Assembly: GCF_035917335.1 (NCBI RefSeq)
Contig: NZ_CP109067.1
Location: forward strand, 1,056,501-1,120,500
Length of the DNA stretch: 64,000 nucleotides
Direction of reading: 5' to 3'
Source: Micromonospora sp. NBC_01813
Lineage (GTDB): Bacteria; Actinomycetota; Actinomycetes; Mycobacteriales; Micromonosporaceae
Each line of letters starts with the position of its first letter. Within the stretch, counting starts at the first letter, position 1. A program made the position numbers and the translations under genes. This document shows positions 1-14,239 of this stretch, in pieces. The notes beneath the pieces were generated by a model. It was not told the DNA's origin. It saw only the letters and a program-made list of their open reading frames with translations, and did no database searches.

Positions 1-1
1 C

Positions 2-682
2 GAGCAACGACGCACGCTCCTGGCGCTCGCGGAGGTCAGCAAAGTCAAGGGTTGGTTCCATCCCTACTCCGACATTCTGCCAACCAACTTCGACATATAC
101 ATCGGACTGGAACAAGCAGCGTCCGCGATCATCGCCTACGAATCCGAGCGAGTACACGGCCTCCTACAAACGGAGGACTACGCCCGAGAAATGCTACGCA
201 TCCCGGGAACCGACGGACGCATCCGGGACAACGCCGAGATCGAACGCCGCGTACAAGTCCGAATGAGACGACAACAGATTCTAACCCGAGACATCGAACC
301 GACACACATAGAATGGATCGTCGGCCAATCGGTCCTGCTGCGCCCCACCGCCTCCCCGGCAGTGATGGCCAAACAGCTCCTGCACATCATCACACTCAGC
401 GAGCTTCCCAACGTCTCGGTGTGCGTCGTCCCCTTCGAAGCGGGACTACACCAGGGAATCGTGACCGGGCCGTTCGCGATGCTACGGTTCGCCGACAACT
501 CCGAGCCACCGACCGTCTACGTGGATGGATTCATGGGACACCTGCTCGTCAACAAGCCGGCAGAGGTCGACCGATTCGAATCAGTCATCACCGCTATCCG
601 CAGCTGCGCCCTCAACAAAACCGCATCCAAGAAGATCATCCACCAAAGAGCCAAGGAGCTATCCGACTCCCGGGTCGCATGA
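2..682 (+). CDS. XRE-family regulator, DUF5753 domain (5' end cut by window)
   Basis: The frame is open from base 2 to a TGA at 680-682, giving 226 visible residues; the N-terminal helix-turn-helix should lie left of the window. The visible part is a DUF5753 ligand-type domain: a W-F-H-P-Y motif near residue 18, then 'HGLLQTEDYAR' at residues 52-62, the usual signature of the family. In streptomycetes and relatives such proteins are XRE regulators that are often paired with small DUF397 proteins; no DUF397 gene follows here. Codon choice (ATA, AGA, CGA) is more A-rich than in genes further right, which may mean the left end of the window was acquired. The 184 bp that follow hold no gene I can support. 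Role in the neighbouring peptide cluster is only inferred from position. Confidence 0.8.
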   Translation, partial: EQRRTLLALAEVSKVKGWFHPYSDILPTNFDIYIGLEQAASAIIAYESERVHGLLQTEDYAREMLRIPGTDGRIRDNAEIERRVQVRMRRQQILTRDIEPTHIEWIVGQSVLLRPTASPAVMAKQLLHIITLSELPNVSVCVVPFEAGLHQGIVTGPFAMLRFADNSEPPTVYVDGFMGHLLVNKPAEVDRFESVITAIRSCALNKTASKKIIHQRAKELSDSRVA

Positions 683-866
683 TTGAGGCGATTTGTTTTC
701 TCCGGCAGGCCCGTGCTGGCGTCGACGACAGCGGACTCGACCATTAGTATCGATTAACGTCTTGGATCCTCGATACCGCCAAAGTGGGCCGAACTTCCAA
801 CTGGATGAGGGATATCATGCAGGTGGATAGGGCATGTTCGGCAATCGATGTCGGTGACGCATTGGA

Positions 867-2192
867 TCACACAGCAAGAACCTCAGCCAACCATCGTGCG
901 GCTGGTGCCGAGCGCAGGTTAGCGGGGACGCTACGGTAGAGATCGACGGCGCGGCGGCGGGTAAGGCCTGTTTGGTAGCGGACTGGAATGTCTACGAGGG
1001 TTGCGACCGCAGCCTGACACGCGTCCAGGGTGTGGCCGTCGCGGTGTTGGCAGGTCGCCGCGTCGAGGCGCAGCAAGGTGCGGGTCAAGGTACTGGTAGG
1101 TGCGGAGAGGGCGAGTGCGTGAGCTTGGCTTTCTCGTGCGCGACGCGTCTCGCCGAGGGCAGTCATCGCGTGGGAGAGGTGGACGTGGTGCTTCTGCTCA
1201 CAGTGGCCGAACCAGGTGTCAGCGCGTTGGTCCTCGGGGAGCGTGTCGGCCAGGCGGTCGGCGTCGCGGAGTGCCGCCGTGGCTTCTTCGCGGCGACCGC
1301 TCAGTGCGTAGGCGCGGCCGGTGACGGCGGCGGCGAGAGCTGCGGCGGCGGTAGGAGTCGCTCCGGCTATGTGCCTGGCTTGTTCGGCGAACGCGGCTGC
1401 TGCTTCGGGTGCGCCGAAGTTCAGCGGGACCATGGCTTTGCGGGCGAGTATCCAGGCGTGTAGTTGCCTGTCGCCGGACTCCTGTGCGGAGCGGGCGGCG
1501 GTGGCGAACCAGGCGTTCGCCTCACGCTGGCTGCCGAGGTCGTGCAGGACGACGGCAGCCATGCCGCCGAGTTGGCCCATGATCCGAGTTAGTGCGGTGC
1601 GGGCGGCAGCGGGTTGAGGTCGCTGTAGCAGGGGAACCACGTCGCTGAAGTCGGCGATTAGGTCGGCTAGGACGTCGGTCGGCGCGCGGCCTCCGTAGCC
1701 GTAGCTGTGCTGTTCCGTGGTGGCTTCCAGCCGGGCGATGTCGGCGGGGCCGGCACCGGCCAAGGCGTTGTCGGCTTTGCCCAGCAGATCGGTGAGCTCG
1801 GTGAGTGGGGCGGCGGTCAATCCGGCAGCGAGGGCGGAGCGCAGTAGGTTTCGTCGATGCATGGATTCATCCTCCATCGCTGGGCGTGGTGTGACAGGGG
1901 CGTCACTCTCCCAGGATCGCGCGGCCAGGCCCATCATGGCACCGGGGATGCGTAACCCATCGGCGATGCGCTCGACGGTGTCGAATGCGGTGATCTGTGC
2001 TTCGCCCCGGGCGATCAGGCTGATCCGGTCGGCTTTCAAGCCGGTAGCGGCGGCGATCGCGTTCCAGCTCAGTCCAGCCTTCTTCGCGGCGGCGAAGACC
2101 GTGCTGAAGGTTCGGGCGCGTAGAGCCTGCACCACGACGGGGTCGTGAAGCAGTCGGCGGGGAAGCATTCGAGCTGACGCAGACGAGTCCAC
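867..2192 (-). CDS. XRE-family transcriptional regulator with TPR-like C-terminus
   Basis: The N-terminal 80 residues form a helix-turn-helix of the XRE type ('LSWNAIAAATGLKADRISLI' is the recognition region). The rest is Ala-rich and helical, like the TPR-type sensor domain of many actinobacterial regulators (about 441 residues in all). I chose the GTG at 2192 because GAGGAG sits four bases upstream; an in-frame TTG at 2204 and an ATG at 2168 are alternatives. The gene is divergent from the peptide precursor gene, with 162 bp between the starts, so it is the most likely local regulator of the RiPP-like cluster. A twin-arginine-like region following residue 100 ('MHRRNLLRSALAAGL') is often seen in this protein group and is not taken as a real export signal. 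The cognate ligand is unknown. Confidence 0.8.
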   Translation of the reverse strand: MDSSASARMLPRRLLHDPVVVQALRARTFSTVFAAAKKAGLSWNAIAAATGLKADRISLIARGEAQITAFDTVERIADGLRIPGAMMGLAARSWESDAPVTPRPAMEDESMHRRNLLRSALAAGLTAAPLTELTDLLGKADNALAGAGPADIARLEATTEQHSYGYGGRAPTDVLADLIADFSDVVPLLQRPQPAAARTALTRIMGQLGGMAAVVLHDLGSQREANAWFATAARSAQESGDRQLHAWILARKAMVPLNFGAPEAAAAFAEQARHIAGATPTAAAALAAAVTGRAYALSGRREEATAALRDADRLADTLPEDQRADTWFGHCEQKHHVHLSHAMTALGETRRARESQAHALALSAPTSTLTRTLLRLDAATCQHRDGHTLDACQAAVATLVDIPVRYQTGLTRRRAVDLYRSVPANLRSAPAARWLAEVLAV

Positions 2193-2340
2193 AGGGCTCC
2201 TCAAGGGCCGCGCAGGTCGATCGATGGACTATACCGCCGACAAGCCTTTGTGGGTGACCCCCCGTAGTGGTGCCCCCATCGTAGGGTTACGCGCTGTGGG
2301 TGGGGTGAGGTGTAGTGACTCTCGTCATTGCAAGCCTCGT

Positions 2341-2347
2341 AGGAAGG
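2341..2347 (+). promoter_or_regulatory. Ribosome binding site of the precursor peptide gene
   Basis: AGGAAGG lies seven bases before the ATG at 2355. It is the best support that the 57-codon reading frame is translated. Confidence 0.6.
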
Positions 2348-2354
2348 TAGATCG

Positions 2355-2528
2355 ATGATCCCCACCAGCACCACGGCCCCTGCGGCCAGCCCGACCCCCC
2401 GTGGCTCCGATCAGGTCCGGCAGTACGCCTCTGTGGCAGCGGCGACGCTCGCGCTGGGCTGCAAGACCTACTCGGGCACCGTCGCCCAGGGCAGCGGTGG
2501 CGTGCCCGCCGTGACGTCCGCGAGGTAG
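2355..2528 (+). CDS. Putative RiPP precursor peptide (57 aa)
   Basis: This short frame has a good ribosome binding site and ends at a TAG at 2526-2528. The peptide starts with a Thr/Ser/Pro/Ala-rich stretch (residues 1-16), has a charged bridge 'RGSDQVRQY' (16-24), a hydrophobic Ala/Leu segment (25-34) and then 'GCKTYSGT' (35-42) followed by a Gly/Ser/Val/Thr tail that ends in Arg57. It has a single Cys (36), a single Lys (37) and two Tyr (24, 39). A short peptide of this kind directly ahead of a SPASM radical SAM enzyme is the usual layout of RiPP loci, so I read residues 1 to about 30 as leader and the rest as core. Where the core begins, which residues are modified, and whether the tail is removed cannot be seen. 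It matches no precursor family that I recognise by sight. Confidence 0.7.
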   Translation: MIPTSTTAPAASPTPRGSDQVRQYASVAAATLALGCKTYSGTVAQGSGGVPAVTSAR

Positions 2529-2564
2529 ATCCACCCCGCTACAGCTCGGACATCGAATCGAGAT

Positions 2565-2601
2565 GGCTGCCGGCCCGCGAACCCCACGCGGGCCGGCAGC
2601 C
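2565..2601 (+). terminator. Hairpin between precursor and maturase genes (partial terminator/attenuator)
   Basis: A perfect 15-bp stem (2565-2579 pairs with 2587-2601) encloses a seven-base loop. No T-run follows. It sits between the precursor stop and the maturase start, where RiPP operons often use a leaky terminator or RNA-stabilising hairpin to make more precursor than enzyme. Confidence 0.65.
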
Positions 2602-2618
2602 CCAGCTTGGGAGGCCTG

Positions 2619-2771
2619 ATGACGTCATTTCCCCCTGTGCTGCGGTTGGCGGACATGCGGTTGCGGCACGAGCACTTCGGCGCCCTCGCGTGGACTACCA
2701 CCCAGCCCCGCCGCTTCTGGAGTTGCCGAGCGCGGCTGCCATGGTCGCGCTGCTGGCCCGCGAGCCGTTGA
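2619..2771 (+). other. Frame-shifted 5' end of the SPASM maturase gene
   Basis: An ATG at 2619 has a strong site (GGGAGG, 2609-2614) five bases upstream and begins a 50-codon frame that stops at 2769-2771. Its residues 13-25 read 'MRLRHEHFGALAW', which looks like the first strand of SPASM peptide maturases. The conserved enzyme, however, continues in the next frame from about 2690. Adding one base at about 2691-2693 (a G in the TGG) would join them smoothly as 'GALAW' then 'DYHPAPPLLEL'. This is either a real frameshift mutation or a sequence error. Confidence 0.6.
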
Positions 2772-3847
2772 CCCCGCAGTTCCCGCCGCAGGCACAGACC
2801 GCGCTCGCCGACCGTTTCGGCCTTGACCAGTCCCGGTGGACCACGACCGTCGGTGAACTCCACTCCGCGGGCGTCCTTACCTCCGCCGCCGGCTTGCTGG
2901 CCGAGCCGGTGACCGAGGCACGGGTTCATGCGGTAGCCGATGAGACCCAGGCGGCGCGGCCGACGTCTCCGGTGCTCAAGCCGTTCTGGGTCCATCTACA
3001 ACCATTCACGATTTGTAACCAAACGTGCCTGCACTGCTACTGCTCCGGCGGTCCGAAAGCGGACCCGTTCCTGCTGTCTCTAGACCAGTGGCACGAGATC
3101 ATTCGCCGGCTCGACGACTACGGCGTGCTGGACATCTACATCACCGGCGGCGAGAGCTTGCTCCTGCCCGGATTCTTCGACCTGGCCGCCGACATCATCA
3201 GCCGAGGGTTGGGCTTCGGGGTGTCGACCAACGCCACCGTGCTCGGCGGCGACCGGCTGGAGCGGCTCCGCGAGTTGGGGGCGTCCCCGGTACAGGTGTC
3301 GCTGGACGGTGGGCAGGCCGCGACGCACGAGATGATCCGCAACGCGCCCGGCTCCTGGGACAAGACCCTCGCAGGGATCCGTGCGATCGGCGGGTTCACC
3401 GAGGTCGTCATCAACACGGTGGTCAACCACATCAACCTGCGGGAGTTGGAACAGGTCGTTCAGGTCGGGCTTGGCGGCGGCGTGCGCCGGTTCAAGTTCT
3501 TCCCGCAGAAGCCGGTAGGACGGTCCAACGCGGCGGTGACCTTGGACGACGCCACGATCCTGACCGTACTCCTACCGGAATGCCGGCGGCTGGCTGAAGC
3601 GTATGACGTCGAGATCGAGACGATCAGCCCCACCGAGGGGTGCGGCAGCGGCAGCATCGGCTTCGCCGTCGACCAACGCGGTGACGCCTACCCGTGCATC
3701 TTCGGGGTGGAAAACCGGTCCCTGCGGGCCGGCAACCTCCTGACCGACGATCTGGAGACGATGTGGTTCGGCTCGGCGGTGTGGGAGCAGTTCCGCGGTG
3801 AACCGAGCACCCCCTGCCGGCGCTGCGAGTCGTCATGCCCGCGGTGA
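2690..3847 (+). CDS. Radical SAM/SPASM peptide maturase (N-terminus apparently frameshifted)
   Basis: The protein has the radical SAM cluster motif C109-x3-C113-x2-C116 ('CNQTCLHC') followed by the usual 'ITGGE' strand, and a C-terminal SPASM/twitch region with Cys in 'GCGSG', 'YPCIFG' and 'CRRCESSC' for auxiliary Fe-S clusters. Enzymes of this group use S-adenosylmethionine to install C-C, C-S or C-O crosslinks or epimers in precursor peptides in the cytoplasm; the adjacent small peptide is the obvious substrate. From the GTG at 2690 it has 385 residues, but the better ribosome binding site lies at the ATG 2619 in another frame, so about 24 N-terminal residues are probably lost or hidden by an indel. 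The stop overlaps the next start by 13 bases, so the two radical SAM genes are translationally coupled. Confidence 0.8.
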   Translation: MDYHPAPPLLELPSAAAMVALLAREPLTPQFPPQAQTALADRFGLDQSRWTTTVGELHSAGVLTSAAGLLAEPVTEARVHAVADETQAARPTSPVLKPFWVHLQPFTICNQTCLHCYCSGGPKADPFLLSLDQWHEIIRRLDDYGVLDIYITGGESLLLPGFFDLAADIISRGLGFGVSTNATVLGGDRLERLRELGASPVQVSLDGGQAATHEMIRNAPGSWDKTLAGIRAIGGFTEVVINTVVNHINLRELEQVVQVGLGGGVRRFKFFPQKPVGRSNAAVTLDDATILTVLLPECRRLAEAYDVEIETISPTEGCGSGSIGFAVDQRGDAYPCIFGVENRSLRAGNLLTDDLETMWFGSAVWEQFRGEPSTPCRRCESSCPR

Positions 3848-4881
3848 CTGATTCGAGCCGTCCGAGGGTACTCGTGTGGGCACCGACTCTGTACGAGTCC
3901 GGATTCAAACAGCGCCACGTCGACGGAGACGCCCTCGCGGTACAGGCGTCCCTACGCGCCGCCGACTACGACAGCGTCCTGCTGGACGCCTACTACAAGG
4001 GCAGACTCGCCGCGACGCTCGCCGACACCCTCGCTGATGCCGCCGGCATCACCGGCTTCGACGTGCTTGTGGTGCACCTGTTCACCTCTGACGCGTACGG
4101 GCCCCGGCTGCGTCGCATCGCCGACGAGCTGGTGGCCGCACGGCTGCGGCACCCCCGGTTAACTGTCATCGGTTTCGGCCCCTTGGCGGTGTCAGCCGCA
4201 GGCGAGCTGATGGCGCACGGGGCGGTCGACCACGTCGTGGCCGGTCCTGCCAGCGCGACGCATAGCCCGTTCGTCGCGAAGCTCCTCGCGCACCTGTATG
4301 CGCACCTGGCGACGTACACGTCGCTGCGGTCTCTCACCGCCGAGGATCTGCCGTACGGCCCCGACGCGGTGGTGTCGGTGGCGGCCAGCCGAGGCTGCCG
4401 ATCCCGCTGTACGTTCTGCGCCTACAACGCCGATCTGCCCGGCGGCGGTTGGCGGGACCTGCCGATGGCCCCGGTAGTGGCCGACGTCGTCCACCTGCAC
4501 AAGATGACCGGTGCGACGGCCTTCGCGTTCAGCGACTCCGACTTCGGTGGCACTCGCAGCGAATGCGCACGCCGTGCCGTCGAACTACGCGACGGCCTGC
4601 GAGTCGCCGGCCTTACCGGCAGGCTCACGCTCGCGATCAGCGTACGCGCGGAAACCCTCGACCCCGCCACGGTCGGCGTCCTGGCCGACGCCGGGGTACG
4701 CAGCATGCTCATCGGCGTGGAGTCGTTCAACCCAGACACCCTGCGCCGGATCTACGGCAAACGTCAGGATCTGCTCCACCTACGGAAGGTGGTCGCCGCC
4801 GCAGACGATGCCGGGGTGACGACGGTCGCCAGCTACATCCTGTGGCATCCCTGGCAAACCCTCGACGGGCTCCGCGACGAA

Positions 4882-4885
4882 CTAG
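4882..4885. repeat. Target-site duplication, left copy (CTAG)
   Basis: CTAG immediately precedes the left inverted repeat. The same four bases follow the right inverted repeat at 5908-5911. The target is palindromic. Confidence 0.75.
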
Positions 4886-5907
4886 ATGATCGATTCCAAG
4901 GGGTCAGTGGTCGAACGCGGTCAGGGATCGCAGGATCGGTTGGCCGGTGTGCCAGTTGTGCCAGATCGCGGCGGTCAGAGCGAGGACGCGTTGCATGATC
5001 CGGACGGCGACGCCGGTGATGGTCCGGCCGCCGTGTTGTTCGAGGTCGAGTTGGCCTTTGAAGGTCTGGTTGACTGATTCGATGGTCTGCCGGACGGCGC
5101 GTAGCAGGCCGCGGCCGGGTCGTGAGGGCTCGGTGCGGTACGCGGGTCGTACGACGGTGACGCCGTTGTCGTTGAGCCAGGTTTCGGTGTCGCGGTCGCG
5201 GTAGCCCTTGTCCACGACCAGGATCACCCCGTCGGGGTGGTGGAACATGCCGGGTTGCAGGGTGACCAGGTCGACGAGGACTTCACGTTCGTCGGTCTTG
5301 GCGTTGGTGAGGGCGAACGCGACCGGCAGTCCGTGGACCGTGGTGACCAGGTGCAGGCGCAGTCCCCAGAACAGTCGTGAGTGGGAGGCGCAGTAGCCGT
5401 AGCCGGCCCAGCCGGCCAGGTCGGACCGTTGCACCGTCTCGCGGGACGTGCCGCACGGCACGGGTGTGGAGTCGGCGATCCGGATCGGGTGCCGCCACAG
5501 GTCGGTGTCGGTGGCCAGCGCCGCGATGAAGTGGGCCAGTTGGGTGGTCAGCGCTCGTAGCCGCTTGTTGTAGCCGGGCTGTTTGGGCAGGTGGGGGAAC
5601 AGATGGATGATGGATTTGTGGGCGTAGCGGATCCAGCGGGTCTCGTTGTGGTAGCCGAGTAGTGCCTGCATCACTGACACCGTGATGAGTTCGGCGTCGG
5701 TGATCCGGGCGGTGATGCCGACCGCTGGACGCCACCGGTTGAGGTGTGGGGACGCCTTCAGTTCGTCGTCGATCCTGACGTACAGTGCGGTCGCGAGGGT
5801 GTCCAGATCGACGTGCACGTGGCCTCCATGGTCTCGCTGCCTAGGCAACGTTGATCATGGATGCCCTCGCGTCTGCTTGCTACCCCGTATCCCTTGGAAT
5901 CGATCAT
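4886..5907 (-). mobile_element. IS982-family insertion sequence, 1022 bp
   Basis: Perfect 17-bp terminal inverted repeats (4886-4902, starting ATGATCGATTCC; complement at 5891-5907) bound one transposase gene. CTAG target duplications lie on both sides. Size, single reading frame and transposase type fit the IS982 family. Exact ends are fixed by the restored reading frame of the host gene after removal. The element is complete, so it may still be mobile. Confidence 0.85.
4904..5818 (-). CDS. IS982-family DDE transposase
   Basis: The 304-residue protein starts with 'DLDTLATALYVRIDDEL', the typical opening of IS982 transposases, and carries 'SGYNKRLR'-type ('PGYNKRLRAL') and 'GYCASHSRLFWGLRLHL' motifs. 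Candidate catalytic acids lie in 'IADSTPVPC', 'LVVDKGYRDRD' and 'QTIESVNQ' (DDE). I chose the GTG at 5818 because GGAGG precedes it; a TTG at 5848 is also in frame. Length is normal for the family and there are no stops or shifts, so it looks intact. It runs antisense to the radical SAM gene it disrupts. It has no part in the peptide pathway. Confidence 0.85.
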   Translation of the reverse strand: MHVDLDTLATALYVRIDDELKASPHLNRWRPAVGITARITDAELITVSVMQALLGYHNETRWIRYAHKSIIHLFPHLPKQPGYNKRLRALTTQLAHFIAALATDTDLWRHPIRIADSTPVPCGTSRETVQRSDLAGWAGYGYCASHSRLFWGLRLHLVTTVHGLPVAFALTNAKTDEREVLVDLVTLQPGMFHHPDGVILVVDKGYRDRDTETWLNDNGVTVVRPAYRTEPSRPGRGLLRAVRQTIESVNQTFKGQLDLEQHGGRTITGVAVRIMQRVLALTAAIWHNWHTGQPILRSLTAFDH

Positions 5908-5911
5908 CTAG
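5908..5911. repeat. Target-site duplication, right copy (CTAG)
   Basis: Second copy of the four-base duplication; joining it to the left flank gives an unbroken reading frame in the interrupted radical SAM gene. Confidence 0.75.
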
Positions 5912-6238
5912 ACGCCCTGGACCACTTCGGTCGGCACCGAATCCCGCACTTCATGGCCCGTAGCCGATTGGAGGTCATCCCCGGCACCATCATCGAACGG
6001 CAGATCGCCACCGACGGGCTGCTCGTCACCGCGCCCTTCCACCGCGCCTTCACCATCGCGGATCCGGCCGCCGCCGCCGTCAACCATGAACTCACCAACT
6101 GGTACTCCACGACCGCAGCGCCGGTGCTCGCCGGCCTGCACGAAGCGGAGCCCGGCAGTCTGAATCAGCTCGCCGAACTCAAGATCGCCGAGTGGGCCTG
6201 GCTCACCAACGCTGTCACCAACAGAGAGGCCGCCGGCC

Positions 6239-7984
6239 ATGGGTGATCTGCTGCTGGGTGTCCACGGCGGAGCCAACGCCACCGCAGCCATCGCCGTCAA
6301 CGGGCACCTCGCCCACTGCGTGCAGGAGGAGCGGCTGACCGGGATCAAGGGATACATGGGCTTTCCACACCACGCCGTCGCCGCCTGCCTACACGAGGTC
6401 GGCGCCGATCCCTCCGACATCACCGAAGTTGTATACGGCAGCCGTTCCGGACCCGTCGACCACTGTCCCCGAGACGAATGGCTACACCGACTCGCCGGCT
6501 TCCACCAGCAGCCGCAGCCGGCCACGACAGACACGGAGGCGGCCCTGGTAGCCGCCACAGCCGGCGCGCTACCGCAGCGAGTTACGGCCATGCTGCACCA
6601 CGGCGGCATCACCGCAGCCCGGATCACTTACGTCGACCACCACACCGCCCACGCCGCCGCCGCATACTACGGACTACGCACCGACCCCGACCGCCCCTAC
6701 CTCGTGCTGACCTGCGACGGATTCGGTGACGGTGCCTGCGCGACCGTCTCCACCTGGACAGCCGGCCAGCGCACCGAGATCGCGCGCACCGACATGCGCA
6801 ACTCGCTCGGCCTGCTGTGGTTCTGGTTCACCCATGCCGCCGGGTTCACGCCCCACGAGGACGAGTACAAATTGATGGGCATGGCCCCATACGCCCGTCC
6901 CTCCCGGGCCCGGGAGGTGGCAGACATCCTGCACGGGTACCTCAGCCTGGACCCCAGCGGCCTGCACCTGCGCCGGACCACAGCACTCAGCATCGAACGC
7001 GCCTGGCCCGACATCGAGCAACGACTACGCGGCCGGCGATTCGACGACCAGTTCGCAGGCCTACAACTGTTCACGGAAGACTTGCTCACCCGATGGGCCC
7101 GCAACGCCGTCACCGCCACCGGCGTCCGAAACGTCCTCGTCGGCGGCGGCGTGTTCATGAACATCAAGGTCAACCAGCGCATCGCAGGCCTGGACTGCGT
7201 GGACACCTTCGCCGCGTTCCCATCCTGTGGGGACGAAAGTCTCCCGATTGGGGCCCTGTACCACCACCTCGCCGTGGTACAGGGCCACCGGGCCATTGGG
7301 CCGCTATCCGACTGCTACCTCGGGGACGACATCACTCCCGACGAAGCACGCCACGCGGTAGCCGGCACCGGCCTCTACCTACACGAGCCCGACCACATCG
7401 ACGACGTCCTTGCCAAGCTACTGGCCGACGGGAGAATCGTCGCGCGCTGCGCCGGTCGCATGGAATACGGTGCCCGAGCCCTCGGCAACCGGTCCATCCT
7501 CGCGAATCCGGCCGACGCCGACGCGCCACGACGCCTGAACCAACTCATCAAGCAACGAGACTTCTGGATGCCGTTCGCGCCCGCGATCCTCAACAGCCAC
7601 CAGCACCGCTACATCCGCAACCCCGACCAGCTGCGCAGCCCCTACATGATGCTCGGCTTCGACATCCAACCCGATGCGGCCACCGACATGATCGCCGCGA
7701 TTCACCCCGCCGACCTGAGCTGTCGGCCTCAGATCGTCGACGACGACAGTCCCACCGGGCTCGCCGCGATCCTGCACGCCTACCATGCCCGCACAGGCAG
7801 AGCCGCGCTGCTCAATACGAGCCTGAACCTGCACGGCCGACCCATCGCCCGCACCGCAGCAGACGCCGTCGATGTGCTCCTAAACTCCGACCTGGCGTAC
7901 CTCCAGCTCGGCCCCTACCTCGTCACGAAGCACGCACCGACATATCAAGGCTCATCGCAATATCCACCGCTTGATCAGGGGTGA
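6239..7984 (+). CDS. O-carbamoyltransferase, NodU/CmcH/TobZ family
   Basis: This 581-residue protein has both parts of the family: an N-terminal Kae1/YrdC-linked ASKHA-type domain with the iron-binding set H134-H135-x2-H138 ('DHHTAHAAA') and 'DGFGDG', and a C-terminal part with 'EYGARALGNRSILA' and 'LNTSLNLHGRPIA'. Known members move a carbamoyl group from carbamoyl phosphate via carbamoyl-AMP onto a hydroxyl of a sugar or antibiotic. In this operon the acceptor could be a Ser, Thr or Tyr hydroxyl of the modified peptide, or a hydroxyl made by the radical SAM enzymes; that is inference. The ATG at 6239 overlaps the preceding gene by eight bases. The 3' end overlaps the convergent pentapeptide gene by 62 bases. 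Confidence 0.88.
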   Translation: MGDLLLGVHGGANATAAIAVNGHLAHCVQEERLTGIKGYMGFPHHAVAACLHEVGADPSDITEVVYGSRSGPVDHCPRDEWLHRLAGFHQQPQPATTDTEAALVAATAGALPQRVTAMLHHGGITAARITYVDHHTAHAAAAYYGLRTDPDRPYLVLTCDGFGDGACATVSTWTAGQRTEIARTDMRNSLGLLWFWFTHAAGFTPHEDEYKLMGMAPYARPSRAREVADILHGYLSLDPSGLHLRRTTALSIERAWPDIEQRLRGRRFDDQFAGLQLFTEDLLTRWARNAVTATGVRNVLVGGGVFMNIKVNQRIAGLDCVDTFAAFPSCGDESLPIGALYHHLAVVQGHRAIGPLSDCYLGDDITPDEARHAVAGTGLYLHEPDHIDDVLAKLLADGRIVARCAGRMEYGARALGNRSILANPADADAPRRLNQLIKQRDFWMPFAPAILNSHQHRYIRNPDQLRSPYMMLGFDIQPDAATDMIAAIHPADLSCRPQIVDDDSPTGLAAILHAYHARTGRAALLNTSLNLHGRPIARTAADAVDVLLNSDLAYLQLGPYLVTKHAPTYQGSSQYPPLDQG

Positions 7985-8558
7985 TGATCGCCTCTAGTAA
8001 CGTAACCTCACGAGGATCGAACGCCGTCAACACGCTGCCCCGCAGATCCGCGCGGGTGAAATCCGCCTCGCGAAGGCCCGCGCCGGACAGATCCACATCG
8101 CGCAGCACGACCCCCTGACACCGCGCGCCACTCAGATTCGCCCCACGCATCCTTACGCGGGTGAACTCGGCGGTGCCGAGGTCCGCGCCTAGTAACTCGA
8201 CATCCGACCAGTCGCCGCCCTCCACCTCCAGACCAGACAGATCACACCGGTCGAACATCGACGCGGTGAGTGTGCAATTCGTCAAAGACGCATCCCACCA
8301 ATTGCAGCCGGCAAACCGGCAATCCTTGAACGTCGAACCGACAAGCTTCGTACAGTTGAAACGAACAGCGGTGAAGGTACAGGACTCGAAGAAGCAGTCC
8401 TCAAGCGTCGCCTCACACAGGTCGACCTCCCGGATCGCGGCCCCCTCGTACCGCAACCCCACAAACCTCGCGGGCCCGTCCGGAGCCGATATCGGTACCG
8501 GCCAGTCACCATTTCCAACTACCCTCCGTGACGCCGGTGCCCGCCGCCCTGTCCTCAT
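7923..8558 (-). CDS. Pentapeptide-repeat protein (candidate immunity protein)
   Basis: From about residue 30 to 190 the 211-residue protein follows the A(D/N)Lxx five-residue rhythm: 'FTAVRFNCTKLVGSTFKDC', 'ANLSGARC', 'ADFTRADLRGSVL'. Such repeats fold into a right-handed square helix that can mimic DNA; Qnr, MfpA, McbG and AlbG are members that protect DNA gyrase. The gene overlaps its upstream partner by four bases (ATGA), so the two are co-translated. Its position next to a RiPP-like cluster makes self-protection a fair guess, but many pentapeptide-repeat proteins have no known role. There is no signal peptide. Its coding DNA is less GC-rich than the enzymes further right. Confidence 0.75.
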   Translation of the reverse strand: MRTGRRAPASRRVVGNGDWPVPISAPDGPARFVGLRYEGAAIREVDLCEATLEDCFFESCTFTAVRFNCTKLVGSTFKDCRFAGCNWWDASLTNCTLTASMFDRCDLSGLEVEGGDWSDVELLGADLGTAEFTRVRMRGANLSGARCQGVVLRDVDLSGAGLREADFTRADLRGSVLTAFDPREVTLLEAIITPDQAVDIAMSLDMSVRAS

Positions 8559-9256
8559 GCGTCATCACCCTCGATACGAATGCCCACCGCAGCTGCGAGC
8601 CCGTAAGAAAGGCTCATCAGATCCGTGTGATGCACAACAGCGCCCCGCCAACTCGACAGATCACCAACACCTGCCAGGTCGCAGCCACGAAACCGGGCAC
8701 CGTCCATATCGGCATGATGGAACACCGCACTGGTCAGATCGCAGTTCCGGAACGTTGCTCCCCGCAGGTCGGCATTCGTAAAGTCGGCGCTGGTCAAGTT
8801 GCATCCCTCGAACACCACCGCGTCGAACGCGGTCATCCTCCACGCTGACAAATCCGCACGACACTCGGTGATGGTGACGTCCCGCACCAAGCCGTCAGCC
8901 CAGGTCAGACCGGTCGCCCGGCATTGCGCTATTCGCGCCCTCGTCATACTGCCGCCGTCGGCGCGCACATTAGCCAGGCTGGAGTCTGTGAAAAGGCAGT
9001 CGGTGAACGCGACCTGGTCCAGGCGGCAGCCGGACAAGTCGGCACCTCGGAAACGGCACTGCGTGAACGCCAGCGAATCAGCCTCCTGTCCTGCCAGGCT
9101 CAAACTGTAGAACGCTCGACGTTCAAGCTCCGACTCGGACTCTAACTCTGCGGATTCAAACAGCTCCAGTTCAGGCGGCGGCAAAGGACTTCGAGGCTCC
9201 CTCGCTCTACGCGGGGAGACGGAAGCACGCTTGGCAGGGGTGCGCCGCGAAGACAT
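8555..9256 (-). CDS. Pentapeptide-repeat protein, upstream partner
   Basis: The 233-residue protein has a basic, Ser/Arg/Pro-rich N-terminus (residues 1-30), an acidic Glu/Ser/Leu segment (30-50) and then a run of pentapeptide repeats with Phe or Leu at the centre ('CRFRGADLSGCRL', 'ADFTNADLRGATF', 'CDLTSAVFHHADM'). It begins at an ATG at 9256 and shares four bases with the next gene. The paired arrangement suggests the two proteins could work together, for example as a heteromer, which is unusual since Qnr-type proteins are homodimers. Function is inferred only from fold and neighbourhood. Confidence 0.72.
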   Translation of the reverse strand: MSSRRTPAKRASVSPRRAREPRSPLPPPELELFESAELESESELERRAFYSLSLAGQEADSLAFTQCRFRGADLSGCRLDQVAFTDCLFTDSSLANVRADGGSMTRARIAQCRATGLTWADGLVRDVTITECRADLSAWRMTAFDAVVFEGCNLTSADFTNADLRGATFRNCDLTSAVFHHADMDGARFRGCDLAGVGDLSSWRGAVVHHTDLMSLSYGLAAAVGIRIEGDDA

Positions 9257-9339
9257 GCCCTACACCCTAGCCTCTTGCTCGTATGGACACGTCACCGCAG
9301 ATGGCGGCAAAAGGCGAGGTCCACTCGCGTCCAACGGGA

Positions 9340-9381
9340 GCCGACTCGGTGGGCAGTACCCGGTGAGCATCCCGAGTCGGC
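9340..9381 (-). terminator. Hairpin at the end of the isochorismatase-like gene
   Basis: Ten-base arms (9340-9349 and 9372-9381) pair perfectly and an inner GGGxACCC stem is possible. It ends exactly at the stop codon of the hydrolase gene. Confidence 0.5.
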
Positions 9382-10058
9382 TAGCCGGTGCCGGTGCCGC
9401 TCCAGATCGCGATCACCTGTTCGCTGGTGGTCCAGTCCTCCGGTGCCAGCATGGCGCGGAAGGCGGGTTCGCAGGCCGCGGTCAGCTCCGCGTTGTTGTT
9501 GGCGACGCAGTCGGCCACCACGATGGTGAAGTAGTCCCGCTCGATCGCGTCCCGGACGGTGGACTCCACGCAACCGGTGCCGGCTATTCCGGTGGCGACG
9601 ATGCCGCGGATGCCGCGGCTGCGGAGCAGGTTCTCCAGCGGGGTGCCGACGAAGGCGCTGCGCCGGGTCTTCTCGAACACGGCGTCGCCGGGTTGCGGGG
9701 CGAGTTCGTCGACGATCTCCCAGCCCCAGGTTCCGCGCATGCAGTGCAGCGGATCGAATCCGTACCGCAGATTGTCGGCGAGCCAGACCGGCGAGGCGAG
9801 CGACCCGTCCGGTTCCTGCGCCACCCGGCAGTAGAGCACCGGTACGCCGGCGGACCGGGCCGCTGCGGCGAGTCGGGCGATCGGGGCGACCACGCCTTGG
9901 AAGCCGGTCACCATCGGCTTGCCGAACGCCTTCGCACAGTGGCCGTCATCGTGCACGAAGTCGTTCTGCATGTCGACGACGAGCAGCGCCGTGCAGGTCG
10001 GGTCGATCTTGTCGGCCAGGCGGTCGGGCAGGACGTGCCCGAGGTAGGTGCGGGCCAT
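9381..10058 (-). CDS. Isochorismatase-family cysteine hydrolase
   Basis: The 225-residue protein has the isochorismatase-like fold: catalytic Asp in 'LLVVDMQNDFVHDDG' (near residue 25), a Lys in the 'KTRRSAF' strand and the nucleophilic Cys in 'GIAGTGCVESTVRDA'. Members hydrolyse isochorismate, nicotinamide, N-carbamoylsarcosine, ureidoacrylate or biuret; the substrate here cannot be told by eye. The ATG at 10058 was chosen because AGGGAG lies seven bases upstream; a longer frame to 10166 reaches into a terminator hairpin and is not likely. It stands alone between the pentapeptide pair and the xylanase gene, both on the same strand but separated by hairpins. Confidence 0.85.
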   Translation of the reverse strand: MARTYLGHVLPDRLADKIDPTCTALLVVDMQNDFVHDDGHCAKAFGKPMVTGFQGVVAPIARLAAAARSAGVPVLYCRVAQEPDGSLASPVWLADNLRYGFDPLHCMRGTWGWEIVDELAPQPGDAVFEKTRRSAFVGTPLENLLRSRGIRGIVATGIAGTGCVESTVRDAIERDYFTIVVADCVANNNAELTAACEPAFRAMLAPEDWTTSEQVIAIWSGTGTG

Positions 10059-10258: not shown

Positions 10259-13200
10259 TCACCAGGTGGCGCAGTAGCCGACGCTGAACGTGCTCGCACC
10301 GGCCTTCAGGGTCTTGTTCCAGGCCACCCCGTTGATCCGATAGGTGTCGCCAGCGACGTGGTCCCGCTCGAAGTTCCACGCGGTGTAGATGTCGCCTTCG
10401 AGGTCGACGACCCCGACCCACTCGACCGGCTGGTCGGATCCGTTGGTGGCGACGATCTCGGCGCAGTAGCCGCCGCCGCTGTCCGAATCCCACTGGGTGA
10501 ACCGGCGCACCGTGATATCCACGTTGGAGTCCGAAACGAGTCGGCCGACCCCCCACCGGGCGGTCGTCTGATAGCCGATGCCGTCGGGCTCCGCCCAGTT
10601 GCGGATCGCGGTCCGCGCACCGTCGGCGGCATCGTTGACCTGGAAGTCCAGGCCGTGGAACGTACCGAGACCGCCGTACTCCAGCAGACTGATCGCCGCC
10701 TCGACGGTGTAGCCCGCCTCGGTGCGGACCGTCGCGCTCTGCAGGCGGGCCGCCTGGAATCCCTCGTCACCGGTGCCGAAGGAGACGACGTTGTCGGCGT
10801 TGACCCGCACCTGCATGTCGTCGTAGCGGTAGGGGCCGTTCTTGACGTTCCCGGCGTCGACGTAGATCTCCACCGAGTCCTGCGTCCACGGGTCGGAACC
10901 GGAGACGTCCACCACCGGGTCGGCCACCTCGGCCAGCACGTACAGCGTCTGGTCCCGCCACAGGGTACGGACGGTGGCGACCGCGCCACCGGTGCCGGAG
11001 ACCTCCTTGTCGGTGGTGACCGCGCCCGCGTCGGCCCATCCGGCGTCCACGGTGCCGTCGATCACCGGTGCCATCGCGGCCTGCTTCACCTCCAGGTAGG
11101 ACAGCTCCTCGATCAGGGTGAGCGTGCCCACCGCGCCCGGAGTGTTCCAGCCGGCGGTGGTCCCGTCGACACTGACCTGCACGTCGAGGGCGAGCGTGTC
11201 CCCCTCGGCCGCGTCCGCCAGTGGCAGGTGCGCGACGATGTCGTACCCGCCGGCTCGTTCGGTCGCCACGGCCGGCACGTCGCCGGAGCCGTCGCGGTCC
11301 ACCCGGTACGTCGTACCCTCCAGCACGAAATCGACCCCGTCACCGGCGTCGGCCGTACCGTCGGAAACAGTCACGAAGGCCGTCAGCTGCTCGGTCGCCC
11401 ACCGCAGTTGGAACCCGGCCACCTCCTCCACCTGGTGCAACGGCAACTTGCTCCACTCCAGCGCCGAGGTGGCGCCGGGAGCCAGGGCGACGTCCCCGGC
11501 GAAGACGTTCGCGGTCCGCAGCCGGGCCGGCAGCTCGGCGTCGACCGCGCCGTAGTACGCCGGCTTGGCCTGGAAACCGTCGTTGAAGATCAGCGGCGCG
11601 CCGTTGCCGGAGCGCCACGACCGCCCGTCGTTGAGCCCCCAGACCGTGACGACGAACAACTCGTCGGTGTACGCCCGGAAGATCCGGAACGCGTCGCGGT
11701 AGAAGTAGCCCTGCTCGATCAACCGTGCCTCGGTCACCGGAGTGCCGGTGGTGACGTCGAGCTCGGTGACCGCCTGAGTCAACGGCAACTCGGCGAACGT
11801 CTCCAGCGCCGCCTCCAGGCTGCTCGCCGGCGTGGCGAGCGACACGTGGAACTGGTGACCCACCCCGTCGATCGGTACGCCCCGGTCGAGCAGCCGCTGC
11901 ACCAGCGCCTTGTACCGGTTCTGCTTGCCGCTCTGCTCGGTGTTGTAGTCGTTGATGAACAGGGTGACCGGGTCGGTGCCGGGCACGGCGTACTCGTCGT
12001 TGAACGCCTCCTCGGCGTACTGGAACGACAGGTCGATGAACTCCTCGCCGAGGATCCGGTACCACTCGCTGCGCCGGAGGCCGTCGGCGTATTCGCCACT
12101 GTCGCTGACCACCTCGTTGACCACGTCGAAGGCGTTCAACGGGTTCGTGTCCGAGCCGAACTGCCCGTACCGCTGGCTGAGCGACTCGGCGACCGCGAAG
12201 ATGTGCTGGCGCATCCGGTCCCGGAGCACCTGCTGGTCGGCTGCGGACGTGGTCAACGGCTCACCGGCCGCGTCCTGGAACATCCACTCCGGAGTCTGGC
12301 TGTGCCACACCAGCACGTGCCCGTACATGCCGAGGTTGTTGGCCTGGGCGAAGTCCATCATGGCAATCGCCTGGTCGTGCGGCCGGAAGTTGCGCTCGTC
12401 GTCGTACCACGCCTCCGGCTTCATGTGGTTCTCCGCCGTGATGTTGTTGAAGTGCCGGGTCAGCAGCTGTGCGGAAACCCCGACCGTCTCGCGGCTGTCG
12501 ATCGCGACCCCCACCGGGAAGTCGGTGGTCTCGTGGATTGCGGTCAGCTCCTCGACCACCGGCGGGTCCGGCACCCGGACCACGACGTCGTCGAGCAGGA
12601 AGTCACTGGTGTTGCCGGCGACGTCCGCACCCTGCCAACTGGTCTCGAAGTACATGAACGCGGTGTCGAAGGCCGGTGCGGTGAAACTCGCGGTGACCTC
12701 GGTCCAGCCGCCGTTGCCGACGGTCCCGAACTGGGCGAGGGTGCTGAACGACTCGCTGCCGCCCGAGGTGGTGGCCAGACTCAACCAGATCTCGTCGACC
12801 GGCTGACCGTCGGCGAAGCGCAACCACGCGGAGAGTTCGTAGCCGACACCCGCCTCGAACTCGGCGGTGACGTCCCGGCCGATGCCGGCACCCTGGTTGA
12901 CCCGGTCGGTGACCAGCGCGGCCGCCGCGCCGTCGTGGGCGATGTCGGTGAGTTCCACCGTCGGCGCACCCGGGCCACCGTCGCGTGGCTGCCAGCCGTC
13001 GAGGCCATCCTCGAAGTCGGTGTCGACGACGATGGTGCCCGGCGGCGGGCCGCCGGGTCCGTCGCTCGGCTTGGTGACCGAGATGTCGTCGACCAGATAC
13101 GTCGCGGTGGCCTCGGCCGCCTCCAGGTAGACCTGGTAGTCGGCCGGGTCGGCGTCGGCCGCAACGGTGAACTCGCCGGTCACCGTGGTCCAGCCGTCGG

Positions 13201-14065
13201 CGGTGATCGTGGTGTCGCCGATCCAGGTGTAGTCCGGCTTCATCACGAACCGGAAGCCCGAGGAGTCCGGTCCGTCCGGTGCCAGTCGGGCGCGCAGGGT
13301 GAAGGTGTGGGTGACGCCGGGGGAGTAGATGCCGGCGGGGCTCTGCAGCCCGTCGAATCCCTCGGAGCGGTCGCTGACCTGCAGGACCCTGCCGTCCTCG
13401 TCGTCCAGCACGGTGAGGGTGGGTTCGCCGCTGGCGGTCCAGGTGCCGGTGCTGCCGTCCTCGAAATCGACGGCGGTGACCGTGACGACACCGGGCACGG
13501 CGTCGGGGGCGGTGACGAGTACGTCGTCGAGCAGGAACGGGGTGGTCTCGGCCGCCTCGACGTACACGGTCGCCGAGGTCAGACCCGCCGGCATCGTGTA
13601 CGAGCCACCGATGCGTACCCAGTCGTCGGCGGTTGTGGTGACGTTGTCGCCGATCCAGGTGTACGTGTTCTCGCCGCCGTCGGCCGGGGTGGCCTCGACG
13701 GTGAAGTGGATGCCGGCGGACCCTTCGGTGCCGGCGGGCAGCTTCGCCCAGGCCGTCACCGAGTAGGTGACGCCGGGGGAGAACAGCTCGGTCGCGCTCG
13801 TCGCCGGGCCCTGCCAGTCGGCTGTCCGGCCGGTGGCCGACAGGCTGGCGGAGCTGTCGCGGCCCTCGTCGCTGATGGCGAGACTCACGTCGCCGCGAGG
13901 GCTCCACGGGGCGTACGAGCCGGACTCGAAGTCGTTGGCCAGGACGACGGTCTCGGCGGCGGCCGACGGGGCGAGGGCTATCGAGGCGACGAGCGTTACC
14001 GCGCCGACCGCAGCGATCGCGGCCAGCCGGCGGGGTCGGTGAAACGAGTGGTATCTGAGGCGCAT
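10259..14065 (-). CDS. Secreted multidomain endo-1,4-beta-xylanase, GH10
   Basis: A 1268-residue exported enzyme that cuts the beta-1,4-xylan backbone. Order: Arg-rich signal peptide ending near 'PSAAAE' (1-38); three CBM4/9- or CBM22-type jelly rolls, each opening with 'DFE(D/S)G' (about 40-185, 195-340, 350-505); GH10 barrel (about 510-860) with acid/base E651 in 'DVVNEVVS' and nucleophile E768 in 'VTELDVTT'; a linker domain; a CBM9-like module starting 'VIDGTVDAGWADA'; and a C-terminal CBM2-like domain with paired Cys and exposed Trp. The ATG at 14065 has CAGGGAG just upstream; a GTG at 14080 is in frame but would put that site inside the gene. It is monocistronic, with a terminator after it. 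No CebR-type operator was seen upstream. Confidence 0.92.
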   Translation of the reverse strand: MRLRYHSFHRPRRLAAIAAVGAVTLVASIALAPSAAAETVVLANDFESGSYAPWSPRGDVSLAISDEGRDSSASLSATGRTADWQGPATSATELFSPGVTYSVTAWAKLPAGTEGSAGIHFTVEATPADGGENTYTWIGDNVTTTADDWVRIGGSYTMPAGLTSATVYVEAAETTPFLLDDVLVTAPDAVPGVVTVTAVDFEDGSTGTWTASGEPTLTVLDDEDGRVLQVSDRSEGFDGLQSPAGIYSPGVTHTFTLRARLAPDGPDSSGFRFVMKPDYTWIGDTTITADGWTTVTGEFTVAADADPADYQVYLEAAEATATYLVDDISVTKPSDGPGGPPPGTIVVDTDFEDGLDGWQPRDGGPGAPTVELTDIAHDGAAAALVTDRVNQGAGIGRDVTAEFEAGVGYELSAWLRFADGQPVDEIWLSLATTSGGSESFSTLAQFGTVGNGGWTEVTASFTAPAFDTAFMYFETSWQGADVAGNTSDFLLDDVVVRVPDPPVVEELTAIHETTDFPVGVAIDSRETVGVSAQLLTRHFNNITAENHMKPEAWYDDERNFRPHDQAIAMMDFAQANNLGMYGHVLVWHSQTPEWMFQDAAGEPLTTSAADQQVLRDRMRQHIFAVAESLSQRYGQFGSDTNPLNAFDVVNEVVSDSGEYADGLRRSEWYRILGEEFIDLSFQYAEEAFNDEYAVPGTDPVTLFINDYNTEQSGKQNRYKALVQRLLDRGVPIDGVGHQFHVSLATPASSLEAALETFAELPLTQAVTELDVTTGTPVTEARLIEQGYFYRDAFRIFRAYTDELFVVTVWGLNDGRSWRSGNGAPLIFNDGFQAKPAYYGAVDAELPARLRTANVFAGDVALAPGATSALEWSKLPLHQVEEVAGFQLRWATEQLTAFVTVSDGTADAGDGVDFVLEGTTYRVDRDGSGDVPAVATERAGGYDIVAHLPLADAAEGDTLALDVQVSVDGTTAGWNTPGAVGTLTLIEELSYLEVKQAAMAPVIDGTVDAGWADAGAVTTDKEVSGTGGAVATVRTLWRDQTLYVLAEVADPVVDVSGSDPWTQDSVEIYVDAGNVKNGPYRYDDMQVRVNADNVVSFGTGDEGFQAARLQSATVRTEAGYTVEAAISLLEYGGLGTFHGLDFQVNDAADGARTAIRNWAEPDGIGYQTTARWGVGRLVSDSNVDITVRRFTQWDSDSGGGYCAEIVATNGSDQPVEWVGVVDLEGDIYTAWNFERDHVAGDTYRINGVAWNKTLKAGASTFSVGYCATW

Positions 14066-14239
14066 GAAGGCTCCCTGCACGGACGTACGTACGTGTGGTC
14101 GGTGCCTGGTGAATCGCGCCAGCAGATCCAGACGTGGAAATGTTAGCTGGGTCCCGTCGGCCCGTCGACACCTGGTGCGAACCCGCCGCCCGGCACCGCA
14201 CCGGGGCTCGACCGGCAGCCGCCGACCGGCCGGGCGGGC

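What the first reader, a model, noticed from the sequence alone, without database searches (positions are those of the whole stretch)
2355..7984. RiPP-like cluster with precursor, SPASM radical SAM, B12-type radical SAM and O-carbamoyltransferase
A 57-residue peptide is followed by two radical SAM genes and a NodU/CmcH-type carbamoyltransferase, all overlapping. Seen directly: the Cys motifs, the HHxxH carbamoyltransferase motif and the overlaps. Known: SPASM enzymes modify peptides, and CmcH/TobZ proteins put carbamoyl groups on hydroxyls. Inferred: the final product is a crosslinked, perhaps methylated and O-carbamoylated peptide. I know no described RiPP class with this set. No exporter or protease is visible.
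Basis: partly seen in the sequence, partly recalled or inferred. Interest (0 to 1): 0.88.

Follow-up and report, generated by a model that had tools for sequence, protein, structure and literature searches.

The report
Radical-SAM peptide cluster with gyrase-type immunity
A small peptide gene, two radical enzymes, a carbamoyl-transferring enzyme and two probable self-protection proteins form a rare gene cassette that looks like the recipe for an unknown type of peptide antibiotic; the copy in this genome is broken, but intact relatives exist.

Summary
The cluster is real and conserved, but three things were missed. (1) This copy is damaged: an IS982-family element splits the B12-type radical SAM gene, and the SPASM gene's N-terminal piece is out of frame with the rest. 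(2) The cassette runs on past the carbamoyltransferase into two convergent pentapeptide-repeat protein (PRP) genes; PRP2's best Foldseek matches among solved structures are EfsQnr and AlbG, which act on DNA gyrase. (3) The conserved precursor residues are T-Y-S/T-G-T-V/I, not Cys36/Lys37.
I found ten distinct loci: seven Micromonospora-type, Pilimelia, a Hydrogenophaga MAG and a Candidatus Finniella MAG. All ten pair a precursor with both radical SAM genes; all eleven cores (two in tandem in Hydrogenophaga) carry TY[S/T]GT. Nine of ten have an adjacent carbamoyltransferase and PRP. The exception, Finniella, has no PRP match in its MAG but has an exporter and a peptidase.
Most likely this is an undescribed RiPP class: a TYSGT core altered by two radical SAM enzymes, carbamoylated in most lineages, with Qnr/AlbG-type PRPs as self-immunity, pointing to gyrase as target. 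Chemistry and target are inferred. The acceptor group is uncertain: the usual catalytic His of this carbamoyltransferase class is missing from its place in all nine enzymes.

The parts
867..2204 (-). Divergent HTH/TPR regulator, NsdA family
   Evidence: NCBIfam NF053720 147.9 bits, cut-off 75; present in 6 of 7 Micromonospora-type loci, no match in L046
2355..2528 (+). Precursor peptide, 57 aa
   Evidence: Homologue just upstream of the SPASM gene in 10 of 10 loci
2418..2465 (+). Conserved leader end, residues 22-37 (RQYASVAAATLALGCK)
   Evidence: pN/pS 0.31 over 21 pairs against 1.55 for the leader N-terminus; A30 invariant, S26, L32, G35 nearly invariant in the 10-row alignment
2466..2483 (+). 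Core motif TYSGTV, residues 38-43
   Evidence: T38, Y39, G41, T42 invariant in the 10-row alignment; TY[S/T]GT[V/I] in 11 of 11 cores, two in tandem in L031
2565..2601 (+). Conserved GC-rich hairpin between precursor and SPASM gene
   Evidence: RNAalifold on 7 intergenic regions: 21 pairs, -37.95 kcal/mol, only 1 pair with a two-sided change
2619..2717 (+). N-terminal piece of the SPASM enzyme, out of frame with the rest
   Evidence: Reads MTSFPPVLRLADMRLRHEHFGALAWTTTQPRRF, matching the N-terminus of the L026 and L028 enzymes
2690..3847 (+). SPASM radical SAM ORF as it stands (CNQTCLHC; SPASM cysteines)
   Evidence: Pfam; profile match covers positions 29-404 only, against 1-404 in G004 and five other genomes
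3835..4886 (+). B12-type radical SAM gene, 5' part (CRSRCTFC)
   Evidence: Pfam; one open frame in the other 9 loci
4882..5912 (.). IS982-family insertion element with 5-bp target duplication
   Evidence: NF033520 171 bits, cut-off 130; inverted ends; alignment to L026; 4 copies in genome
4904..5848 (-). IS982-family transposase
5908..6246 (+). B12-type radical SAM gene, 3' part
   Evidence: 96.4% identical over 112 aa to the C-terminus of the uninterrupted L026 protein; matched in all 9 other loci
6239..7984 (+). NodU/CmcH-family (class III) carbamoyltransferase
   Evidence: Pfam; best solved relatives NovN 1.1e-53, a carbamoyltransferase 7xb6, TobZ, GdmN
7923..8558 (-). PRP1, pentapeptide-repeat protein
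   Evidence: Pfam Pentapeptide 1.4e-24; best natural solved relative MfpA, after two designed solenoids; pI 4.69
8555..9256 (-). PRP2, pentapeptide-repeat protein
1..9401 (.). Right part of a ~17.2-kb genomic island
   Evidence: Empty site in G003 and G006

Best explanation
A mobile cassette for an undescribed class of ribosomally made, post-translationally modified peptide (RiPP). Shown: a short precursor with a conserved leader end and a TY[S/T]GT[V/I] core is encoded in all ten loci beside one family of SPASM radical SAM enzyme, whose predicted N-terminus is a strand-strand-strand-helix region that aligns with the N-terminal part of SkfB and SuiB, and one family of B12-type radical SAM enzyme. 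In 9 of 10 loci a class III carbamoyltransferase and one or two gyrase-inhibitor-like pentapeptide-repeat proteins are adjacent. Inferred: the SPASM enzyme grips the leader through its N-terminal domain and oxidises or crosslinks the core (not through Cys); the B12-type enzyme C-methylates or further rearranges it; the carbamoyltransferase adds a carbamoyl group to a core hydroxyl or to the freed N-terminus; a host or in-operon peptidase and exporter release the product; the PRPs shield the producer's DNA gyrase. In the window strain the pathway is very probably dead, since both radical SAM genes are broken.
Confidence: 0.78

Rival explanations
1. The product is a signalling peptide, not an antibiotic: the divergent HTH/TPR regulator senses it, and the PRPs act like HetL, which (recalled) protects a cyanobacterial cell from its own PatS peptide signal.
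Against: No match to the window regulator was found in L046, L027, L030 or L031; PRP2 is closer to EfsQnr and AlbG than to HetL; a carbamoyltransferase and two radical SAM enzymes are heavy machinery for a signal.
Confidence: 0.15
2. The carbamoyltransferase works on an amine (the N-terminus of the released core), not on a hydroxyl.
For: Of the two RiPP carbamoyltransferases reported as characterised (crocagin, std), the std enzyme acts on a Lys amine; the His that acts as base on hydroxyl acceptors in GdmN (H27) has no counterpart: window Ala12 aligns with His35 of 7xb6, and, counting back two residues from the printed matches, with residue 27 of GdmN and NovN; 9 of 9 cluster enzymes lack the His-Asp pair there.
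Against: Best solved relatives are O-carbamoyltransferases such as NovN, TobZ and GdmN; no conserved Lys in the core, four conserved hydroxyl residues; in 8 of 9 enzymes a His lies three residues upstream and could replace it.
Confidence: 0.35
3. The carbamoyltransferase and PRPs are chance neighbours; the true system is only precursor plus two radical SAM enzymes.
For: Finniella has just those three plus exporter and peptidase; the Hydrogenophaga carbamoyltransferase is only 27% identical to the window's and sits on the opposite strand.
Against: Both genes lie inside the block shared by seven Micromonospora-type loci and beside it in Pilimelia and Hydrogenophaga; only two carbamoyltransferase genes (E<=1e-5) and one to four PRP genes (E<=1e-6) were found in each of three genomes examined, so adjacency in separate lineages is improbable (my own arithmetic, about 1e-5 for PRPs in Pilimelia and Hydrogenophaga together; no call computed it).
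Confidence: 0.07
4. The peptide is matured to a small redox cofactor, like mycofactocin or PQQ.
For: The SPASM enzyme scores 93.8 bits to the mycofactocin maturase model (cut-off 265) and the core has a conserved Tyr.
Against: Far below the mycofactocin cut-off; sporadic distribution on a mobile island; PRPs and carbamoyltransferase have no evident role there.
Confidence: 0.05

Closest known systems
Crocagin and std RiPPs (carbamoyltransferase-containing)
   Same: RiPP pathways with a carbamoyltransferase; a 2026 preprint calls crocagin the only well-characterised earlier case and std the second (passages)
   Different: 'radical SAM' does not occur in the std paper; other precursors and other main enzymes: YcaO-TfuA and MNIO for std, CgnB/C/E for crocagin (passages)
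SkfB/SuiB-type SPASM RiPP maturases (sactipeptide, streptide)
   Same: Near-full-length fold match including the N-terminal region
   Different: 22% and 16% identity; core lacks a conserved Cys, and the Lys/Trp of streptide (the latter recalled); second, B12-type radical SAM enzyme and carbamoyltransferase present
Microcin B17 with McbG
   Same: Ribosomal peptide with a PRP immunity factor and gyrase target (passages)
   Different: Azol(in)e peptide made by another enzyme set; here radical SAM enzymes and a carbamoyltransferase
Speirobactin and albicidin
   Same: Gyrase inhibitors protected by a PRP (speirobactin's in its operon; AlbG for albicidin); speirobactin's cluster also has a carbamoyl transferase, and albicidin has an O-carbamoyltransferase Alb15 (reference title)
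   Different: Nonribosomal scaffolds

Membership tests
RiPP | Conserved precursor peptide encoded with its modifying enzymes | tested here: met
   10 of 10 loci
RiPP | Precursor is modified and cleaved to a mature product | not testable with these tools
   needs expression and mass spectrometry
SPASM radical SAM peptide maturases | CxxxCxxC motif plus SPASM domain with further Cys | tested here: met
   Pfam Radical_SAM and SPASM above cut-off in window, L030 and L031; invariant cysteines in six sequences
SPASM radical SAM peptide maturases | N-terminal RiPP recognition element | tested here: inconclusive
   Strands 8-37 then helices 38-83 in the L028 model; SkfB and SuiB alignments begin at residues 12 and 8, but the N-terminus is covered by few rows; no Pfam PqqD hit in two relatives scanned; domain not searched alone; this region is out of frame in the window
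Sactipeptides/ranthipeptides | Conserved core Cys forming thioethers | tested here: not met
   Cys36 in 7 of 10 precursors only
B12-dependent radical SAM enzymes | B12-binding domain plus radical SAM domain | tested here: inconclusive
   B12-binding Pfam 21 bits, cut-off 32.1; Radical_SAM 48.2 bits, cut-off 29.5; best solved relative is the apramycin oxidoreductase entry 6fd2
Class III carbamoyltransferases | Kae1-like and C-terminal domains, iron-site His/His/Asp/Asp | tested here: met
   Pfam both domains; HHxxH, CDGFGDG and SCGDES align to the corresponding stretches of NovN
Class III O-carbamoyltransferases | Catalytic His (GdmN H27) before the Asp of the first motif | tested here: not met
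   Ala12 aligned to His35 of 7xb6; two residues before the printed start of the GdmN match, i.e. residue 27; no His-Asp pair in 9 of 9 cluster enzymes, a His three residues upstream in 8 of 9
Gyrase-protecting PRPs (Qnr/MfpA/AlbG) | Right-handed pentapeptide beta-helix with C-terminal cap, acidic | tested here: met
Gyrase-protecting PRPs (Qnr/MfpA/AlbG) | Binds gyrase / protects from a poison | not testable with these tools
   needs assay
IS982 family | IS982-type transposase, inverted ends, target duplication | tested here: met

The most novel reading that the evidence does not exclude
A ribosomal gyrase poison, a second kind beside microcin B17, built from a TYSGT[V/I] core by a SPASM and a B12-type radical SAM enzyme, carbamoylated by a carbamoyltransferase with a displaced catalytic His, and paired with dedicated Qnr/AlbG-type self-immunity. 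It would be a cross-phylum, island-borne antibiotic class in Micromonosporaceae and Betaproteobacteria.
Probability: 0.4. Interest if true: 0.9.

Novelty: new variant of a known kind. Interest (0 to 1): 0.74.

Why it matters
Carbamoyltransferases are described as exceedingly rare in RiPP pathways (two cases, passages), and the gyrase-targeting RiPP in the review passages I saw is microcin B17. A compact precursor, two radical SAM enzymes, a carbamoyltransferase and built-in target-type immunity would give a testable route to a new gyrase inhibitor chemotype and to new radical chemistry on a five-residue motif. The self-immunity genes turn an orphan cluster into a hypothesis about its target. 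The enzymes could be assayed in vitro with peptides of about 57 residues.

Tried and rejected
Sactipeptide or thioether reading (Cys36): dropped because Cys is not conserved. L032 (22% identity, Clostridia) and L041 (viral contig, 25% over part) were rejected as unrelated radical SAM matches and entered no count. No closer relative in plasmids (290 records, none covering 80% of the query; 15 listed, at most 28.5% identity) or phages (6 records, at most 27.1%). Precursor search of 151 relatives: 53 had a match at E<=0.1; I tested 18 fetched weak hits (L008-L025) for TY[S/T]GT in or near the hit and only L013 (= G036, the Pilimelia locus) had it (one search had read minus-strand hits on the wrong strand and is superseded for this). 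The rest of the weak hits were not examined. Beyond the host family, 1 of 396 genomes drawn from the phylum (the own genome) and 1 of 399 drawn from the Hydrogenophaga MAG's family (itself) had a match at 1e-60. The 445-aa ORF beside the Hydrogenophaga PRP gave no Pfam or NCBIfam match and only two insignificant PDB matches, E 0.63 and 0.81. The carbamoyltransferase found elsewhere in the Finniella MAG lies beside a sugar-epimerase-like ORF (named by eye) and has the usual His-Asp pair; it is not part of the cluster. The Pilimelia LanB-like/FxLD-methyltransferase genes downstream look like a separate FxLD lanthipeptide locus. Hairpin covariation was weak, 1 of 21 pairs. PRP sequence similarity alone does not single out gyrase PRPs: unlinked PRPs also match Qnr/MfpA. 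No direct repeat of 12 bases or more was found between the island ends as searched.

A SPASM-gene dS of 0.327 between window and L026, against 0.06-0.10 for the other five genes, suggests recombination; not pursued. The B12 3'-piece query used was translated out of frame, so I use the in-frame comparison instead; one Pilimelia B12 query was out of frame too and is not used.
Full report
WHAT IS IN THE SEQUENCE. The window is bases 1,056,501-1,120,500 of a 7.63-Mb single-contig genome in the same family as Pilimelia and Micromonospora. The finding's parts are present: a 57-aa ORF (2355-2528), a SPASM radical SAM ORF (2690-3847), a B12-type radical SAM start (3835) and a class III carbamoyltransferase (6239-7984). 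The genome has one copy of the SPASM gene; two weaker matches elsewhere are 36% and 34% identical over part.

THE COPY IS BROKEN. The B12-type gene is interrupted by an IS982-family element (transposase 171 bits, cut-off 130). The uninterrupted relative L026 aligns to window 1-4886 and 5908-9380, the two pieces sharing five bases of L026. Inverted ends are 37 nt, 81% complementary. The genome holds four copies at 99-100% identity, this one included, which suggests recent movement. The 3' piece is 96.4% identical to the end of the L026 protein. In the SPASM gene the N-terminal residues MTSFPP...RLRHEHFGALAW... (from ATG 2619) lie in a different frame from the rest, while six of six Micromonospora-type relatives match the full profile without a stop. 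The part lost is the strand region of the putative leader-binding domain. The window strain probably makes no product; intact copies exist in relatives.

THE FAMILY. Searches: 3 of 151 relatives at E<=1e-30; 8 of 354 genomes of the family at 1e-60; 1 of 396 drawn from the phylum, the own genome; 1 of 399 drawn from the Hydrogenophaga MAG's family, itself; and five loci in one scan of genome contigs, of which L032 was rejected. After removing duplicates (L042 contains L028; L029 and L027 lie on contigs of the same length at matching places) there are ten distinct loci: window, L026, L028 (M. andamanensis), L043, L044, L045, L046, L027/L029 (Pilimelia terevasa), L030 (Candidatus Finniella MAG) and L031 (Hydrogenophaga MAG). 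The system is rare and patchy.

THE PRECURSOR. A homologous small ORF sits just upstream of the SPASM gene in 10 of 10 loci. In the ten-row alignment M1, A30, T38, Y39, G41 and T42 are invariant. All eleven cores read TY[S/T]GT[V/I]; L045 has TYTGT and L031 has two leader-core units in tandem. Of 18 weak precursor matches fetched from other places, only the Pilimelia one carries the motif. Cys36 and Lys37 are present in 7 of 10. The leader N-terminus drifts (pN/pS 1.55) and the leader end is constrained (0.31), over 21 pairs; the core itself gives 0.62 because of V/I and S/T swaps, and the whole precursor has a high dN/dS of 0.705. A strong hairpin lies between precursor and SPASM gene in seven of the seven Micromonospora-type loci; only one pair shows a two-sided change. 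It may set the peptide-to-enzyme ratio (inference).

MOBILITY. Window 1-9401 is the right part of an island of about 17.2 kb; G003 and G006 have the two flanks next to each other. The island's left part holds two transposase-like ORFs (recognised by eye) and one arm of an 895-bp inverted repeat, 99.6% identical, carrying a DUF5753-type regulator; the other arm runs into the window's left end. In G004 the flanking xylanase-like locus is at 3.0 Mb while the cluster is at 1.47 Mb.

HOW IT MOST LIKELY WORKS. The SPASM enzyme binds the leader and oxidises the core. Finniella retains the core and both radical SAM enzymes without adjacent carbamoyltransferase or PRP, so the TYSGT[V/I] motif is probably dictated by the radical SAM steps (inference). 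The B12-type enzyme adds a second change, plausibly C-methylation. The carbamoyltransferase caps the product. In Finniella an MFS transporter and an M3-family peptidase follow directly and show what export and leader removal could look like; the actinobacterial cassette leaves these to the host. PRPs protect gyrase. Precedents: speirobactin's operon has a PRP, a carbamoyl transferase and gyrase (GyrA) as target (passages); AlbG protects from albicidin (passages); carbamoylated albicidin is the better gyrase inhibitor (passage); McbG serves microcin B17 (passage).

WHAT IS KNOWN. Searches of the held library found no paper with 'TYSGT', none with 'carbamoylated', 'RiPP' and 'radical SAM' together, and no title or abstract start describing this set in the listings (15 of 78 listed). 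Most subscription papers are not held. A 2026 preprint (passages) calls carbamoyltransferases exceedingly rare in RiPP pathways, with crocagin and std as the two cases. I therefore file it as a RiPP by gene content, as a new variant (a probable new class), and not as a sactipeptide, azole peptide or mycofactocin-type system.

Noticed in passing
window 4882-5912; G000:C1 35327, 386112, 1901439: Four near-identical copies of one IS982-family element in the genome, suggesting recent transposition.
   Followed up: partly
L068 12196-13090 and L068 19272 to window 665 (G000:C1 ~1049195 and ~1056501): 895-bp inverted repeat, 99.6% identical, carrying DUF5753-type regulator genes around transposase-like ORFs in the island; G004 has a matching inverted pair.
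   Followed up: partly
window 2690-3847 vs L026: SPASM gene dS 0.327 against 0.06-0.10 for the other five genes in the same pair of genomes: possible allele exchange.
   Followed up: no
L031 5893-7230: 445-aa ORF after the PRP on the carbamoyltransferase side of the Hydrogenophaga cluster, without any Pfam or NCBIfam match or significant PDB match; possible extra enzyme.
   Followed up: partly
L027 912-5171: FxLD-system methyltransferase and thiopeptide-type/LanB-like gene downstream of the Pilimelia cluster: probably a separate FxLD lanthipeptide locus.
   Followed up: no
L030 8166-11826: Finniella cluster followed by MFS transporter, M3-family peptidase and, on the other strand, a formyltransferase-like gene.
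   Followed up: partly
L071 308-910 (G000:C1 ~6.46 Mb): Unlinked MfpA-like pentapeptide-repeat protein of the host chromosome, which could mask PRP deletion phenotypes.
   Followed up: no
window 10259-14080 (-): Large xylanase-like protein (named by eye) to the right of the island; its region is matched in 7 of 7 genus genomes.
   Followed up: no
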